Source: Fibrobacterales bacterium Fibro_02 (GTDB lineage Bacteria; Fibrobacterota; Fibrobacteria; Fibrobacterales; Fibrobacteraceae). Taken from it: a DNA stretch of 63,053 nt. Under the pieces are notes generated by a model that saw only the letters and a list, made by a program, of their open reading frames with translations, was not told where the DNA came from and did not search any database. Positions 28,726 through 34,152 of the stretch are shown here, piece by piece; the first letter of the stretch is position 1, and every line of letters begins with the position of its first letter. Where the stretch lies: positions 1 through 63,053 of the forward strand of contig LVAE01000011.1 in assembly GCA_001603905.1 (NCBI GenBank). The letters run 5' to 3'. The translations under genes and the position numbers were made by a program.

Positions 28726-29778
28726 TTATTTCTTTTCGCGAATACGCTTGTACAAATTCTCGGCCTTTTCGGTATCACCCGCATTCGAGAAAACGTGGCC
28801 TACATTTTCGGCACCGATGCGTCCCTGCGAATTCCCCGCAAGCCAAGCCCTCATATAGCAATCAAAGGCTTCGTCGTAACGCTTCTGGCTAAAATAAATT
28901 TGTCCTAAATCCAAGTTCAGGTCAGCCTTACCCTTATTATGACGGAGACCTTCTTCGAGCGTAAAGATGGCCATCCACGGAGAATTGTTCTGCACGTACA
29001 TCTGCGCAAGGTAGCGGCGGGCAGAGACATTTTCCGGATCCATCAGAAGGCCGTTTTCCATTTCGTTCAGGGACTGCCGCGTAGAATCCATGCTGCGGTA
29101 ATAGTAGGCCATGGTAAAGTGCACGTCTGCGCCTGCGGTAGCCGTCATCTGAAGCGCATTCTGAAGCGTCTTGATGGCATACTCATAGTCACCGAGCTTT
29201 TCGTAGACTTCGGCAAGGCCGTACCACGCATCCATTCGGTCCGGATTCAGCTGCAGGGCACGTTCAAAATTCTTCTGCGCAAGCGTCCAGTCGCGGCCCT
29301 TCAGGTAGCATTCCGCCAAAGCAAAATGCACATGGTCCGATTCCACGCCGAGTTCAATGGCGCGGTTATAAGCCGCAATGGCCTCGCCCACGTCGCCCCC
29401 TAAATAGTAGAGGTCACCCAGGAGCATCCATGCCTTCTCGAAATTCGGCAAGAGTTCCACCGTACGTTTGTAGGCCACCATCGCGACCTGCTTGCGGTCG
29501 AGCTGAACCAAGGCATTTCCCAAGTTGAACCAGGCAAAAGGTTCGTAACGGCCTTCGTCAATCGCAGCACGGTACAGCGGCACCGATTCCTTATATTTTC
29601 CCTGGTCGTACAACTCATTCGCCTTGAAGAAATAATCTTCGGCAGCGAAAAGAGGAATAGCATAAAATAAAATCAAGACGAGAGACAAGAGACGAGAGAC
29701 GAGAGAATTCCGTCTCAAACCTCTTTCGTCTTTCGTCTGTAGGGCGAAGCCCGTTCTTTCGTCTAATCTAGTTGACAA
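28726..29778 (-). CDS. TPR protein of the TonB2-type operon
   Basis: About 350 residues from a TTG at 29778, chosen because AAGGAG lies 7 nt upstream, inside the end of tonB. A signal-peptide core (SLVLILFYAIPLFA, cleavage near AAED) follows a long N-terminal stretch. Residues about 48-345 are eight or so tetratricopeptide repeats (AWFNLGNALVQLDRKQVAMV, AWMLLGDLYYLGGDVGEAIA, AWYGLAEVYEKLGDYEYAIK). In known TonB2 clusters a periplasmic TPR protein is the last gene, with a proposed role in assembling the complex. Residues 4-36 are largely encoded by a heptad inverted repeat. It is the last gene of the operon. Confidence 0.85.
   Translation of the reverse strand: MSTRLDERTGFALQTKDERGLRRNSLVSRLLSLVLILFYAIPLFAAEDYFFKANELYDQGKYKESVPLYRAAIDEGRYEPFAWFNLGNALVQLDRKQVAMVAYKRTVELLPNFEKAWMLLGDLYYLGGDVGEAIAAYNRAIELGVESDHVHFALAECYLKGRDWTLAQKNFERALQLNPDRMDAWYGLAEVYEKLGDYEYAIKTLQNALQMTATAGADVHFTMAYYYRSMDSTRQSLNEMENGLLMDPENVSARRYLAQMYVQNNSPWMAIFTLEEGLRHNKGKADLNLDLGQIYFSQKRYDEAFDCYMRAWLAGNSQGRIGAENVGHVFSNAGDTEKAENLYKRIREKK
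29676..29766. repeat. Heptad inverted-repeat element within the TPR gene signal sequence
   Basis: The left arm is tandem GACGAGA units (29676-29706). The right arm has TTTCGTC units (29722-29766) interrupted by GGGCGAAGCCC. The two arms are complementary, so a long hairpin can form. The whole element is translated near the N-terminus of the TPR protein. Confidence 0.8.
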
Positions 29779-30409
29779 AGCGGAACTCCTTTGTGGCTTT
29801 CTGCGCCACGGGGAAACCGCCCAGCTGCGCGGGGCTAAACTTCCACTGTCTTACAGCCTTCAGAGCTTCGTTGTCAAATCCATATCCGGGCGGCTCCTGC
29901 GTAAGCACCTGAGCCTGCGCCACGTCGCCATACACGTCAATCACAATCAAGACCTTCACGTAACCCGAAACGCCCATGCGCTTCGCCTTTTCGGGGAACT
30001 TCGGCTGGATTTCACGCAACACCTGTGCCTGTTCATCCACCTCGCCCGCTTCGTAAACGACATTTTCCATCGAGCCCGTCCCTACGGCCACGCCATCGCC
30101 GGCGGCACCGCGCGCAAGCGAGAGGTCCATCTGGAAATTCTGGCTGCGGGACACGCCCATATTCGCAGAAATCTTGAACGGGTTCGGGTTCATCACGGTC
30201 CGCAACACCTTCTGCTTGACCTCGGGCTTCTTTTCGCTCACTAAAACCTCGACTTCCGTCACCGATTCCAGTTCCTTTTCCGTCTTGACGCCCTTATCGA
30301 AGAAAAGCGTATTGATGACCGGAATCGCAAGGAAGAACACCGCGCTCACCACGAAGGAGAGCACCAATGCCAACGGGAAGCGGAAATATTTAGCGAAAAA
30401 ATCAAGCAT
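29768..30409 (-). CDS. tonB: TonB-family energy transducer
   Basis: 213 residues. One N-terminal membrane segment (LALVLSFVVSAVFFLAIPVI) is followed by a short periplasmic linker without the long Pro-Lys stretch of enteric TonB, and then a TonB C-terminal domain from about 125 (QPKFPEKAKRMGVSGYVKVL, VLTQEPPGYGFDNEALKAVR, WKFSPA). It carries proton-motive energy from ExbB/ExbD to outer-membrane receptors. The short linker resembles TonB2 proteins that rely on an added partner. The TPR gene starts inside its last codons. A heptad repeat separates it from exbD. Confidence 0.88.
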   Translation of the reverse strand: MLDFFAKYFRFPLALVLSFVVSAVFFLAIPVINTLFFDKGVKTEKELESVTEVEVLVSEKKPEVKQKVLRTVMNPNPFKISANMGVSRSQNFQMDLSLARGAAGDGVAVGTGSMENVVYEAGEVDEQAQVLREIQPKFPEKAKRMGVSGYVKVLIVIDVYGDVAQAQVLTQEPPGYGFDNEALKAVRQWKFSPAQLGGFPVAQKATKEFRFVN

Positions 30410-30415
30410 ATAACA

Positions 30416-30484
30416 GTTAGAAGTAGGAAGTAGGAAGTAGGAAGCTTTAAAACTGTCTACTGCCTACTGTCTACCGTCTACTCA
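30416..30484. repeat. Heptad inverted-repeat element between exbD and tonB
   Basis: The left arm is GTAGGAA repeated (30423-30444) and the right arm GTCTACT, GCCTACT, GTCTACC, GTCTACT (30455-30482). Both have a 7-bp period and are partly complementary around a CTTTAAAA loop. It fills the whole intergenic gap and may reduce downstream expression or protect the mRNA end. Confidence 0.8.
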
Positions 30485-30889
30485 CTCCTCCTCCTTATTT
30501 GCCGAAATAGAGACCTTGCGTACCTTGGCCAAGTTACATTCATCGAGGATATCCACCACTACCCCGTTAGGAGCATCGCGGTCACTCACGATAATCACCG
30601 GACGGTCAGGCGCTTCGGCCATCATCTGGCGCAGCACCGTGTTGAGCGTCGTCAGGTTCACCTGAGTCTCGTTGATGTGAATCGTGCCCTGACGCGTCAC
30701 ACCAATCAAGATGCTTTCCTTCGCCAAGTCCTTCGCCGAACTGGCCTTGGGCTTGGTCACGTCAACGCCCGTCTCGCGGGTAAAAGTCGAGGTTACGATA
30801 AAGAAGATGAGCAGGATAAACACCATGTCGAGCATCGGCGACACGTCTATTTTTCCTGCGTCCTGCGAACGTTTACGAATAAAACTCAT
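30482..30889 (-). CDS. exbD: ExbD/TolR-type proton channel subunit
   Basis: 135 residues. A single N-terminal membrane helix (ISPMLDMVF-type: DVSPMLDMVFILLIFFIVTS) carries the conserved Asp that takes up protons, and a periplasmic ExbD/TolR domain follows (VIIVSDRDAPNGVVVDILDE). It works with ExbB to energise TonB. Its start codon shares one base with the exbB stop (TAATG), so the two are translationally coupled. Confidence 0.93.
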   Translation of the reverse strand: MSFIRKRSQDAGKIDVSPMLDMVFILLIFFIVTSTFTRETGVDVTKPKASSAKDLAKESILIGVTRQGTIHINETQVNLTTLNTVLRQMMAEAPDRPVIIVSDRDAPNGVVVDILDECNLAKVRKVSISANKEEE

Positions 30890-31707
30890 TATTTCACCTC
30901 AGAATTTTCACTATGGATCCCGTCGCTCGTTCCACTCACTCCAGGATGACTTTGGGAGGAAGATTCAGTTGCGTCGCTCCTTTCAGTTCCGAACGCAATT
31001 TCGCGCTTTCCAGGATGACATTGGGAAGAACCTTCAGTTGCGTTATTCACTCCAGGATGACTTCCATCAGCGGAAAACACATAAGACTCGTACTTCAGGG
31101 CTTCGCTCCATGCCTCTTTTTCGACATTTTCAACGCGACCCGACAAGAAGTTGTAGGCAAGCATCAGCGGGAATGCCACCAAAAGTCCCGCCTGCGTCGT
31201 GAGAAGCGCTTCGGAAATGCCGTCGGCCAACAGCACCGGGTTTCCGAAACCGAAAAGCTGAATCGTCTCGAAGGTATGCACCATGCCGGACACCGTACCC
31301 AGAAGGCCAAGCATCGGGGCAATCGCCGCACAAGTAGAAATCGTCCGCAGCGACCTGGACAAGCTCACCGAAATGCGGTGACGCGTTTCTTCCATCGCAT
31401 TGCGAACCGCAACAGGGCCCTGGCCGCGATACCTGCGAACATCCGAAGCTAGCGCGTAAAAATAACCGTAACGACGGCGTTCCAGTTTCTTGAAAGCAAC
31501 GTCTTCGCCGCTCTTTTTCAAAGTGCGCCAGAAGCCACCGAGACCATTGATGTTGCCGCCTCTCAGCATAAAATAATAGCCGTAGCGTTCAATCATCAGA
31601 AACCAGCCGAACCACCCCAGAATAAATATAGGGGCAAGCACCCAGCCACCGCGAAACACGATGGCCATAGCCGCTTCGATAACCGATATTTGATTGACGG
31701 CTTCCAA
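30889..31707 (-). CDS. exbB: ExbB/TolQ-type proton channel subunit with repeat-derived tail
   Basis: 272 residues from a TTG at 31707, preceded by AAGGA 7 nt upstream and placed directly after the stop codon of the upstream gene (an ATG at 31668 is an alternative). Three membrane segments are visible: WVLAPIFILGWFGWFLMIE, the MLGLLGTVSGMVHTFETIQ helix and the LLTTQAGLLVAFPLMLAYNF helix. This is the standard MotA/TolQ/ExbB layout. After about residue 210 the protein continues with 60 or so residues encoded by a REP-like array (GSHPGVNNATEGSSQCHPG), which has no counterpart in the family and is hydrophilic. It is coupled to exbD by TAATG. Confidence 0.92.
   Translation of the reverse strand: MEAVNQISVIEAAMAIVFRGGWVLAPIFILGWFGWFLMIERYGYYFMLRGGNINGLGGFWRTLKKSGEDVAFKKLERRRYGYFYALASDVRRYRGQGPVAVRNAMEETRHRISVSLSRSLRTISTCAAIAPMLGLLGTVSGMVHTFETIQLFGFGNPVLLADGISEALLTTQAGLLVAFPLMLAYNFLSGRVENVEKEAWSEALKYESYVFSADGSHPGVNNATEGSSQCHPGKREIAFGTERSDATESSSQSHPGVSGTSDGIHSENSEVK
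30913..31062. repeat. REP-like array translated as the ExbB C-terminal tail
   Basis: It starts with TGGATCCCGTCGCTCGTTCC and contains three CCAGGATGAC ends (30941, 31011, 31052), separated by similar GAA(G/C)(A/C)TTCAGTTGCGT segments. The exbB frame reads through all of it. Confidence 0.8.
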
Positions 31708-33267
31708 CTACTTTTCCTTAATCCAGAGGGCGTTCAGCACGGTGAGACCGGCGCTTTCCATACGGGTGCGCAAGGCATCGGCGCGGTTCATCAAGAAGGT
31801 ATGAATCAACTGCAGCGGAATCGCAACGATAAGGCCCGCTTCAGTCGTCACGAGAGCAATCGAAATGCCACCCGCCAAAAGCTTCGGGTCAGAAGTACCA
31901 TGCATCGTAATCACGTCGAAAAGTTCGATCATACCCATCACCGTACCCAAGAGGCCGAGCAACGGAGCTGTCGCAGCAAACACAGAAATCCAGGTGAGGC
32001 CCGATTCCAGTTTCGGGACATCGGCACTGAACAATTCTTCGAGAGCCTTCTCGGCACCTTCGCGGCCTGCATAATTCTTGGCAAGCACCGTCTTGAGCAC
32101 CTTGCCCACCTTGCCGTGAGCCTTTGCCGACAACTGACGGGCCGTATCGATATCACCCTTCTTCAAGGCCTTGATGCAGCGCCTTGTCGAAAGTCCACCG
32201 AAGCCCACCACCATGAGCCACACGAAACGCCACAAGGCAACCAACAAGCCGAGAGCAAATAGCGTCACGATCGGATACATCAGGATGCCACCGTTCTTGA
32301 AGAATTCGCGGAGTTCATCCTTCCAGGTCTTTTCCTGATGGTTCGCCATTTCCGAAGAAAGCTCCGTACTCAAGAGCACATCGACCGGTACCATCGAATA
32401 AGCGGAATCCTTCGAGCTTGTAAAGGCCTTGCTGATTTCGGACTTCGTATCGGGAGTCAAGTTTTCCTGCCAGCTAAAGGCGCGCTTTTTCTCGCCCGCC
32501 ACCGGGAGCATCAATGCCGCCGGATGCAAACCGTTGATATCGACGGCATTTGCCATCTGCATCGCATAGAGGCCTCCCAAGCGCAAGCGGTTTCCCTGGG
32601 CCACGGCCGAGCCGAAAACAAGTTCCGCATTTTCCAGCTGAATTTCACGGGTAAAGGCAAGTTCGCCCTTCGCCACGTTCAAGAGAGCAATCGCAATACG
32701 AACCGGATCGTCGCGGTAAAGGCCCATTTCCTTCTTCACCTTGTTCTGCGCTTCGACGCGGTCAGCAATCTTAAAGGGAATTCCCTGTTCAGCAAACTTC
32801 GCAAGTGTCTCCAGGCGTTCGGGGCCAGCCGCAAGCGACAGGTACTCAGCACGGGCCTTTTCGGCCTGCAACTTGACCTGCGCCAAGTCCTCGCGGGCCA
32901 CACGCACGTCCTCGAACAGACGCGCACGTTCCGACATCAGAGCATCGACCTTTTCCTTGCTTTCGTTGTACTTTTCGTTAAAGAGTTCGCGTTCCTGATT
33001 CGCCGTTTCGCGGTCCTTCCAGCGGGCAGCGACGGCCATATCACGCTTCTTGCGGGCTTCTTCAAGGTCCGCCTTTGCGCTGTTGAGCGCAGCACGTTTC
33101 TTCACCGCATCGATATCGGAGTTCTGCTGCGCAAAGGAAAGAGGAGCCAACGTAGCGAGAGCCGCAACAAAGACGAAAGAGGAGAGACGAGAGACGAGAG
33201 ATTTATTAGAAGCAATCTTTCGTCTTTGGTCTGTAGCGAGCTTGCGAGCGTTCTTTAGTCTAAACAT
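31708..33267 (-). CDS. ttpC: TtpC-like MotA/TolQ/ExbB protein with periplasmic coiled coil
   Basis: 519 residues. A signal peptide (FVFVAALATLAPLSFA, then QQN) is followed by a long coiled coil (about 55-150, many Glu/Arg/Ala heptads), a periplasmic middle part, and a C-terminal TolQ/ExbB channel domain with three membrane segments (GGILMYPIVTLFALGLLVAL near 325, LLGLLGTVMGMIELFDVI, LVTTEAGLIVAIPLQLIHTF). This extra ExbB-like subunit, TtpC, is the hallmark of TonB2 systems described in Vibrio. GGAGGG lies before the ATG, and the start is directly after the DUF3450 gene stop codon. Residues about 4-33 are encoded by a heptad repeat element that runs into the signal-peptide core. Confidence 0.88.
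   Translation of the reverse strand: MFRLKNARKLATDQRRKIASNKSLVSRLSSFVFVAALATLAPLSFAQQNSDIDAVKKRAALNSAKADLEEARKKRDMAVAARWKDRETANQERELFNEKYNESKEKVDALMSERARLFEDVRVAREDLAQVKLQAEKARAEYLSLAAGPERLETLAKFAEQGIPFKIADRVEAQNKVKKEMGLYRDDPVRIAIALLNVAKGELAFTREIQLENAELVFGSAVAQGNRLRLGGLYAMQMANAVDINGLHPAALMLPVAGEKKRAFSWQENLTPDTKSEISKAFTSSKDSAYSMVPVDVLLSTELSSEMANHQEKTWKDELREFFKNGGILMYPIVTLFALGLLVALWRFVWLMVVGFGGLSTRRCIKALKKGDIDTARQLSAKAHGKVGKVLKTVLAKNYAGREGAEKALEELFSADVPKLESGLTWISVFAATAPLLGLLGTVMGMIELFDVITMHGTSDPKLLAGGISIALVTTEAGLIVAIPLQLIHTFLMNRADALRTRMESAGLTVLNALWIKEK
33171..33262. repeat. Heptad inverted-repeat element within ttpC signal sequence
   Basis: The left arm has GACGAGA units (33186-33201) and related AGACGAAAGAGGA; the right arm has TTTCGTC/TTTGGTC/TTTAGTC units interrupted by GCGAGCTTGCGAGC. 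The right end (CTGTAG...GTTCTTT-GTCTA) matches the element at 29676-29766 closely. It is translated in frame. Confidence 0.8.
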
Positions 33268-34062
33268 CTACTTGCCCTCCTTCGGAATTGCAACGGGAAT
33301 CGTCACAAGCCTAGGAGCAGTCTTTCCTTCGGCCACCTTCATTACATCCTTCAATACCGAGCGCATGTTCAAGTCGTCGGATACATTCTTCCAACTGTAA
33401 CCGCCATCGCCTGTCCGAGCAAGCCAGAGCACGTCGTTGCCGTCGTTGCTCACGAATACAGAAGACACTGCACCATAGCGCAAGAATGTTCCGGGAACGT
33501 TGCGAGCATCCACCTGCAGGAATCCCTTGTAGACTTCGGTCGTGTAACCAAGGCGGATTCGGTCGTAGAAGACCTCGAGCGTACGGTTGAGACCGTCGTC
33601 GGCCTCGATGAGTCCCTTATGCAGCTGGTTCGCAATTTCCTGCACACTCTTGATAGTCTCGTCGTTCCGGTAAGGGAAGTCCGACTCAAACACCGGCACC
33701 AGCGAATCAATCACCTTCGCCAGCGATTCACCGTACTTGGCCTTACGGTTTTCAAAGTACTTGACCGTTCCCATGGCCTTCTGACGGGCATCGGCCAGGT
33801 TCTTGAGTTCAGCCTTCAGGGAATCGATTTCAGCCTTCAAGGTCTTGTTCTGCGAAGCAAGGGCCTGCACCTTCTTGCGCCCGACCTCGACAAACTCGGA
33901 ATGGCGTTTCTTTTCGGCGTCGTGAAGCGACTTTTCACGAGCAGTTTCAGCTTCCACCGACTTGATCTGGCGGCGAACGCTCTCTACCGTTTCCTGCGCC
34001 TGCGAGAACACGCCCGCCAGACACAGACAAAGAAAGATCTTAGAGAACAAATGAAATTTCAT
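33268..34062 (-). CDS. DUF3450 periplasmic protein of the TonB2-type operon
   Basis: About 264 residues from the ATG at 34062 (frame open upstream without homology). A signal peptide (FSKIFLCLCLAGVFSQAQE) is followed by a coiled coil over about 25-115 and a C-terminal domain (SLVPVFESDFPYRNDET, RIRLGYTTEVYKG, GTFLRYGAVSSVFVSNDG, LWLARTGDGGYSW) that matches the DUF3450 pattern. In gammaproteobacteria this family sits first in ttpC-exbB2-exbD2-tonB2 clusters, as here. Its task is not known; a periplasmic scaffold or regulator of the channel is likely. It is the first gene of the six-gene operon. Confidence 0.85.
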   Translation of the reverse strand: MKFHLFSKIFLCLCLAGVFSQAQETVESVRRQIKSVEAETAREKSLHDAEKKRHSEFVEVGRKKVQALASQNKTLKAEIDSLKAELKNLADARQKAMGTVKYFENRKAKYGESLAKVIDSLVPVFESDFPYRNDETIKSVQEIANQLHKGLIEADDGLNRTLEVFYDRIRLGYTTEVYKGFLQVDARNVPGTFLRYGAVSSVFVSNDGNDVLWLARTGDGGYSWKNVSDDLNMRSVLKDVMKVAEGKTAPRLVTIPVAIPKEGK

Positions 34063-34152
34063 ACCCGAAAAATACAAAGAACCGCAGCCACTAGACCACG
34101 GTTCCATGTGAGAAATAGCGTTTTTTACTCAATAGTTGGATTCTACGACTCA

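What the first reader, a model, noticed from the sequence alone, without database searches (positions are those of the whole stretch)
29676..33262. Heptad inverted repeats encode parts of two signal peptides in the TonB2 operon
Seen: elements at 29676-29766 and 33171-33262 share 7-bp units (GACGAGA / TTTCGTC) and a common right end. In both genes the start codon and ribosome site lie outside and the element is translated in frame to give SLVSRLLSLVLI and SLVSRLSSFVF, running into the hydrophobic core. Three heptads equal seven codons, so expansion by three units keeps the frame. This is a possible route for creating or tuning signal peptides from repeat DNA, and a potential phase-variation site.
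Basis: partly seen in the sequence, partly recalled or inferred. Interest (0 to 1): 0.7.

Follow-up and report, generated by a model that had tools for sequence, protein, structure and literature searches.

The report
Swappable signal peptides built from repeats
In Fibrobacter bacteria, two genes of one TonB-type transport operon carry short repeated DNA between the start codon and the conserved protein, in the stretch predicted to be the export signal; close relatives often carry quite different repeats there while the rest of the protein hardly changes, so this signal is likely built from repeat DNA and swapped between strains as a cassette.

Summary
Both elements (29676-29766, 33171-33262) lie between start codon and mature protein of two genes of a six-gene TonB2-type operon, in frame. 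I compared the operon in 77 Fibrobacter genomes. The segment from start codon to predicted cleavage site has been replaced many times by unrelated repeats: five heptad families plus longer elements. In the last gene (ttpD-like TPR) the same TTG starts an open frame in 76 of 76 genomes; the other two frames are open in 2 and 0. A heptad with stop codons on one strand occurs in these segments only on its open strand (40 pattern hits to 0). Among close pairs the 70 nt before the cleavage site are under 70% identical in 19 of 46 (ttpC) and 52 of 73 (TPR) pairs, against 0 of 66 for the first gene's signal peptide. Proteins with an identical 474-residue mature part carry unrelated signal peptides. 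Phase variation by slippage is not supported: GACGAGA-type runs stop at four units, with one exception. No RAYT transposase was found to explain the spread. Best reading: gene-junction repeats become translated signal-peptide cassettes where start and stop codons overlap, and cassettes are likely exchanged by recombination. Signal-peptide function is predicted, not tested.

The parts
33268..34107 (-). DUF3450 gene (ttpB-like), first gene; its own signal peptide is conserved
   Evidence: PF11932; 0 of 66 close pairs under 70%
33276..33282 (-). ribosome site AAGGAGG of ttpC, outside the element
   Evidence: sequence
31708..33267 (-). ttpC-like long MotA/ExbB gene, ATG at 33267 next to the upstream stop codon
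   Evidence: PF01618; ortholog in 77 of 80 genus genomes
33171..33262 (-). element 1: GTAG-tagged, weakly paired right end, heptads, and an inverted four-unit heptad arm; predicted n-region and start of h-region of TtpC
30889..31707 (-). exbB
   Evidence: PF01618
30482..30889 (-). exbD
   Evidence: PF02472
30410..30481 (.). exbD-tonB spacer with another heptad pair (AGTAGAC / CTTCCTA)
29768..30409 (-). tonB; its end holds ribosome site and TTG start of the next gene
   Evidence: PF03544
29786..29792 (-). ribosome site AAAGGAG of the TPR gene
   Evidence: sequence
28726..29778 (-). TPR gene (ttpD-like), TTG at 29778, 8 nt before the tonB stop
   Evidence: TPR families; same TTG in 76 of 76 genomes
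29676..29766 (-). element 2: GTAG-tagged hairpin, heptads and inverted four-unit heptad arm; predicted n-region and start of h-region of the TPR protein

Best explanation
In Fibrobacter, short dispersed repeats gather at the gene junctions of this TonB2-type operon, and at two junctions, where the next gene's start codon lies at or before the upstream stop codon, they lie inside the next gene's reading frame and are predicted to be translated as the n-region and part of the h-region of a signal peptide. The left edge of the replaced segment lies just after the upstream stop or the start codon in most close pairs, and for the TPR gene the right edge lies 2-21 nt before the predicted cleavage site (shown). 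The insert must stay stop-free in the frame of the fixed start codon (shown by frame and by strand bias). Heptads suit this because 7 is not a multiple of 3: an array spells one seven-residue cycle in every frame. GACGAAA gives DERRKTK and its inverted partner TCTCGTC gives SRLSSLV, so the inverted pair reads charged, then hydrophobic, in the order of a signal peptide (codon arithmetic shown; function inferred). New alleles presumably arise as repeats insert or are replaced after the stop codon, by an unknown mechanism. Existing alleles likely move between strains by short-tract homologous recombination using the conserved flanks. The signal peptide would be cleaved off, so the mature protein need not change.
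For: Frame: TPR start TTG at -8 of the tonB stop and open frame in 76 of 76; other frames open in 2 and 0; segment 96-396 nt. Strand: stop-bearing heptad strand 0 pattern hits, open strand 40 (in 9 segments), against 11 and 9 in the exbD-tonB spacers, where both strands occur. Repeats: 7-bp periodicity in 47 of 70 ttpC and 25 of 76 TPR segments, 0 in equal lengths of mature gene; other lags 4-13 at most 2. Turnover: at least 37 and 41 label changes on a tree of the six proteins without these segments. Replacement: different repeat label in 23 of 46 (ttpC) and 58 of 73 (TPR) close pairs. Control in the same operon: 0 of 66. Exchange: G064 and G070 share a 98.7% identical ttpC cassette with flanks of 87% and 91%, while G018, 98% like G064 in both flanks, has no insert; identical 474-aa mature parts with unrelated signal peptides (P0019 against P0061 and P0071). 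Relaxed constraint: pN/pS 0.44 and 0.37 in cassettes against 0.10 and 0.04 in mature parts.
Against: No experiment and no signal-peptide predictor was run; signal peptides were judged by eye and by hydrophobicity. Two other genes with a signal-peptide-like N-terminus whose start abuts the upstream stop in G076/G077 are not hypervariable in the genus, so overlap alone does not explain it. A later in-frame ATG/GTG exists in 36 of 76 TPR cassettes, and a later ATG/GTG/TTG in 47 of 70 ttpC cassettes; a public record likely from strain UWB12 starts at such a codon (P0137). For ttpC the right edge is scattered (39 nt before to 10 nt after the predicted cleavage site) and could be followed in only 9 of 19 pairs. 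Recombination is inferred from identity contrasts, not from mapped tracts.
Confidence: 0.6

Rival explanations
1. Adaptive cassettes: signal-peptide diversity itself is selected, for example to retune amounts of TtpC and TtpD or to escape something that senses the export signal.
For: Unrelated alleles on identical mature proteins; the first gene's signal peptide in the same operon is conserved; of 220 ortholog pairs in stretches around and including the operon only ttpC was scored as replaced (2 pairs).
Against: Cassettes evolve under relaxed constraint; no phenotype known; many unrelated repeats serve equally.
Confidence: 0.22
2. Slipped-strand phase variation at the heptads switches the two genes on and off.
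For: Tandem heptads lie inside the frame; one other family differs by three units; runs on the GACGARA strand of ttpC cassettes range from 2 to 5 units.
Against: Runs reach at most four units in the 20 own-genome sites and in 1.5 Mb of six other genomes; arrays are short and imperfect; every TPR frame is open.
Confidence: 0.04
3. The elements are GTAG-tagged REPs moved by a RAYT transposase that happened to land in coding DNA.
For: GTAG next to a short stem of varying sequence in 6 of 9 own-genome matches; REPs inside genes are known (PMC3733652, passages read); Y1 genes are present in two of the richest genomes, G021 and G020.
Against: 3 of 9 matches have no stem and element 1 pairs only weakly. 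The one own-genome Y1 gene reads like IS200 tnpA by eye and no GACGAGA lies in the 3.4 kb around it. Y1 genes occur in 27 of 80 genomes and are missing from nearly complete genomes with many heptads such as G017 and G007. The other heptad families lack the tag.
Confidence: 0.08
4. Wrong start sites: translation begins downstream and the repeats are extragenic.
For: TTG start in the TPR gene; later in-frame starts in many alleles; Di Nocera et al. warn of this for N-terminal REPs (PMC3733652).
Against: 76 of 76 open frames and the strand bias; no later start before the h-region in own ttpC.
Confidence: 0.07
5. Artefact of chimeric metagenome bins or short-read collapse.
For: Many of the genomes appear to be MAGs and repeats are hard to assemble.
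Confidence: 0.03

Closest known systems
Rickettsia palindromic elements (RPE)
   Same: Small inverted-repeat elements inside unrelated coding genes, in frame, product presumably tolerating the insert (PMC10969869, passages read).
   Different: Here the place is the predicted signal peptide of two fixed genes, hit repeatedly by unrelated repeat families, with alleles apparently swapped between strains.
GTAG-tagged REP / REPIN with RAYT transposases
   Same: GTAG beside a stem of varying sequence in 6 of 9 own-genome matches.
   Different: The tag is embedded in heptad arrays; no RAYT recognised; other families lack the tag. PMC3733652 does not mention Fibrobacter in its main text (term search).
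Heptamer direct repeats: TAACTGA of Beggiatoaceae, STRR of cyanobacteria
   Same: Seven-base units, mostly intergenic, many near gene starts (PMC4679880, abstract and passages read; STRR recalled, and seen in listings).
   Different: Forward TAACTGA makes stop codons in all three frames (same paper), so it can only end an ORF; several families here are read through in frame.
TonB2 operon ttpB-ttpC-exbB-exbD-tonB-ttpD of Vibrio
   Same: Same gene order and kinds: first gene, long TtpC, ExbB, ExbD, TonB, TPR protein (PMC6957404, passages read).
   Different: That paper's main text has no occurrence of 'signal peptide' or 'signal sequence'; the passages I read say nothing of repeats.

Membership tests
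Rickettsia palindromic element | inserted in frame in coding genes | tested here: met
   further own-genome cases by home-made gene calls
Rickettsia palindromic element | about 150 bp palindrome of a named RPE family | tested here: not met
   elements of about 91 bp built of heptads; sequence identity to RPE families was not searched
GTAG REP mobilised by RAYT | GTAG tag next to a hairpin | tested here: inconclusive
   stem of 3-4 bp in 6 of 9 own-genome matches, none or chance in 3; element 1 pairs weakly
GTAG REP mobilised by RAYT | RAYT gene in the genome, flanked by the repeat | tested here: not met
   own draft genome is 89% complete
slipped-strand phase-variable locus | unit number varies freely and moves the gene in and out of frame | tested here: not met
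   no strain-level reads
TonB2 system operon | gene order ttpB-ttpC-exbB-exbD-tonB-ttpD | tested here: met
   Pfam order DUF3450, MotA_ExbB (519 aa), MotA_ExbB, ExbD, TonB_C, TPR; order in Vibrio; ttpB equated with DUF3450 by position and because that paper names DUF3450
cleavable Sec signal peptide | charged n-region, hydrophobic h-region, A-X-A cleavage site | tested here: inconclusive
   seen by eye and by a home-made hydrophobicity rule, which missed TtpC in one pair; no predictor run
cleavable Sec signal peptide | export and cleavage in the cell | not testable with these tools
   none

The most novel reading that the evidence does not exclude
A modular signal-peptide system: selection keeps a pool of repeat-built, interchangeable signal-peptide cassettes that recombination swaps onto constant TonB2 proteins, and heptad repeats serve as the raw material because any stop-free heptad is readable in every frame and an inverted pair spells the charged-then-hydrophobic plan of a signal peptide.
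Probability: 0.25. Interest if true: 0.88.

Novelty: new variant of a known kind. Interest (0 to 1): 0.68.

Why it matters
Repeats inside genes are known, but usually as scattered, tolerated inserts. Here one segment, the predicted export signal of two conserved proteins of a TonB system, has been rebuilt from different repeats dozens of times while the protein behind it changed little. That makes three questions directly testable: how little sequence a bacterial signal peptide needs, how new signal peptides arise, and why some start-stop overlaps are open to repeat invasion. It also gives a natural series of allele swaps on one mature protein.

Tried and rejected
Phase variation by heptad slippage: not supported by unit counts. 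RAYT mobilisation: no matching gene distribution, though two heptad-rich genomes (G021, G020) do hold Y1 genes. Known structured RNA: 0 Rfam matches up to E 0.1 in 29600-33400. RNA hairpin as the main point: the two start regions gave z -1.19 and -2.67, not consistent, and families without inverted arms occupy the same place. Looping-out of the exbD-tonB insert to bring ribosome site and ATG together: in 43 spacers over 25 nt (two over 400 nt left out) the path was not shorter than in shuffled spacers (median 0.40 of shuffles reach the observed path). General hypervariability of signal peptides: not seen in 220 ortholog pairs or in two control genes. That 220-pair script did not count the TPR gene because my gene caller chose other starts (rows), and 51 of its 76 signal-peptide-like pairs come from G076/G077, in which the ttpC and TPR cassettes are kept too. 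Literature: the listed rows (8 to 20 rows of 11 to 1,655 papers) showed no paper on repeat-built variable signal peptides in bacteria, and one search returned none; the library holds open-licence papers only.

Rows dropped or set by hand: G078 ttpC (cut gene), G048 TPR (contig end), G022, G050 and G068 (no ttpC ortholog). In one search seven ttpC rows came out not open because the script missed their start; G010, G040, G033, G035, G032 and G034 read open and were labelled by hand, G037 was reassigned. Repeat labels come from patterns written after seeing the sequences; several 'none' TPR rows (for example G029, G030, G032, G036) have longer segments and may hold unrecognised inserts.
Full report
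What was claimed and what is there. The window lies in a Fibrobacter draft genome (PF09603 gene beside the operon; named neighbours). On the minus strand stands a six-gene operon: DUF3450, a long MotA/ExbB protein, ExbB, ExbD, TonB, TPR. This is the order of the Vibrio tonB2 operon ttpB-ttpC-exbB-exbD-tonB-ttpD (PMC6957404, passages). The two elements are real, share units and right end, and lie between start codon and conserved protein of ttpC and of the TPR gene. In the own genome a search with element 1 found the full-length composite only at these two places; the other 32 matches up to E 10 are parts, many at chance level. A looser arrangement with two GTAG ends lies between genes on contig C83.

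The elements belong to a repeat world. The 14-mer of two heptads is found in 65 of 80 genus genomes, up to 184 times in one; the reversed control matched once in all. GTAG-tagged ends sit inside some arrays; 6 of 9 such matches in the own genome have a 3-4 bp stem of differing sequence, 3 have none or look like chance, and element 1 pairs weakly. In the own genome a script with a home-made gene caller placed 9 of 21 sites between genes and 12 in or touching a gene; two of the 12 only touch an edge and one has a weak call. So in-frame entry into genes is not confined to these two.

Comparison across the genus. ttpC has an ortholog in 77 of 80 genomes. I fetched the operon from 76 further genomes. 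ttpC and TPR cassettes were labelled in 76 genomes each: 55 and 53 carry recognised repeats, 21 and 23 none. At the same place different species carry GACGAGA, AATTCGG, AATGTGR, AGGYTCS or CTTCCTA heptads and longer elements, sometimes stacked: the predicted TPR signal peptide runs from 18 to 118 residues. The 7-bp period, a test that needs no labels, is seen in 47 of 70 ttpC and 25 of 76 TPR segments and in none of the equal-length controls.

The inserts are very likely translated. The TPR start TTG is at the same distance from the tonB stop in 76 of 76 genomes and its frame is open in all, the other two in 2 and 0, although the segment runs from 96 to 396 nt. For ttpC the script found 70 of 77 open (other frames 10 and 13); the other seven were missed starts that read open. 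A heptad with a stop codon on one strand appears in the two segments 40 times (overlapping pattern hits in 9 segments) on the open strand and never on the other, but on both strands (9 and 11) in the exbD-tonB spacers of the same operon. Against this, later in-frame start codons exist in 36 of 76 TPR and 47 of 70 ttpC cassettes, so some alleles could start later. Because 7 and 3 share no factor, an array spells one seven-residue cycle in all frames: DERRKTK or DERRETR on one strand, SRLSSLV on the other, and a hydrophobic SYFLLPT cycle for the CTTCCTA family. In 9 TPR cassettes that last family supplies much of the predicted h-region.

Cassettes are replaced as blocks. On a quick tree of the six proteins without these segments at least 37 (ttpC) and 41 (TPR) label changes are needed (20 of 74 inner branches are weak). 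Among pairs whose next 400 bp are at least 93% identical, labels differ in 23 of 46 and 58 of 73 (pairs are not independent). In the pairs tested for edges the left one lies 5-13 nt after the first base of the ttpC start in 15 of 19 and at 10-17 nt, just after the tonB stop, in 34 of 46 TPR pairs. The right edge could be followed in 39 of 46 TPR pairs, in 35 of them 2-21 nt before the predicted cleavage site; for ttpC in only 9 of 19, scattered from 39 nt before to 10 nt after it. The first gene's signal peptide (90 nt measured) is never under 83% identical in 66 close pairs, whereas the 70 nt before the cleavage site are under 70% in 19 of 46 (ttpC) and 52 of 73 (TPR). In 220 ortholog pairs of three genome pairs, in stretches around and including the operon, replaced N-termini were scored twice, both times in ttpC. 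Two other signal-peptide-like genes with abutting starts align from residue 16 or earlier in 77 of 77 genomes and from residue 20 or earlier in the best match of 74 of 78, while the ttpC alignment starts at residue 21 or later in 64 of 77; signal-peptide lengths differ, so this comparison is rough. Junctions in general do turn over: 8 of 46, 11 of 39 and 18 of 103 are under 70% identical by home-made gene calls.

Exchange. G064 and G070 share a nearly identical ttpC cassette (98.7%) with less similar flanks (87 and 91%), while G018, 98% like G064 in both flanks, has no insert. Public proteins include identical 474-residue mature parts with unrelated signal peptides (P0019 with P0061 and P0071). 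Likely explanation: recombination within conserved flanks. Cassettes evolve with pN/pS 0.44 (14 pairs) and 0.37 (16 pairs), mature parts with 0.10 and 0.04.

Against phase variation. GACGAGA-type runs are two, three or four units long in six sampled genomes (21, 7 and 8 runs) and reach four in 12 of 20 own-genome sites, never more. Runs reading TCTCGTC on the coding strand have four units in 17 of 23 cassettes and two in six. Runs on the other strand are less even, two to five units, with one run of five. One other family differs by three units between two sister genomes.

Mobility. The only Y1 transposase gene of the own genome reads like IS200 tnpA by eye, and no GACGAGA lies in the 3.4 kb around it. 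Y1 genes occur in 27 of 80 genomes: present in heptad-rich G021 and G020, absent from nearly complete, heptad-bearing G017 and G007. How the heptads spread remains open.

Limits. Everything rests on sequence. Signal peptides were not run through a predictor. Labels and gene calls are home-made. Many genomes are drafts and likely MAGs, though contigs of 1-2 Mb (G042, G046, G077) hold such cassettes.

Noticed in passing
window 30410-30481; same junction in 76 genomes: The exbD-tonB spacer holds another inverted heptad pair between the ribosome site inside exbD and the tonB ATG; spacing runs from 3 to 871 nt, 25 nt or less in 31 of 76. Folding does not bring the two together better than shuffles.
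   Followed up: partly
window 30936-31063: The end of exbB holds TCCAGGATGAC-type repeats, a third case of repeat DNA in frame in this operon.
   Followed up: no
own genome sites L011, L012, L021, L025, L028, L035: Heptads apparently in frame inside other genes, for example DERRKTKDEK in a gene I read as uvrA by eye; empty sites in relatives were not checked.
   Followed up: no
20 own-genome sites and 1.5 Mb of six sampled genomes: GACGAGA-type runs have a ceiling of four units there, as if the array were a module of set size; one run of five was seen in a ttpC cassette.
   Followed up: partly
L195-L274: A 22-base stretch of the same heptad array occurs in Nitrospirota, Sorangium, Rikenellaceae/Alistipes, Gemmatimonadetes, Kapaibacterium and planctomycetes.
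   Followed up: no
TPR cassettes of 20 genomes, for example G054 and G067: A long GCGGGCGGGGCCCC element is read in frame; with further repeats it makes predicted signal peptides of up to 118 residues.
   Followed up: partly
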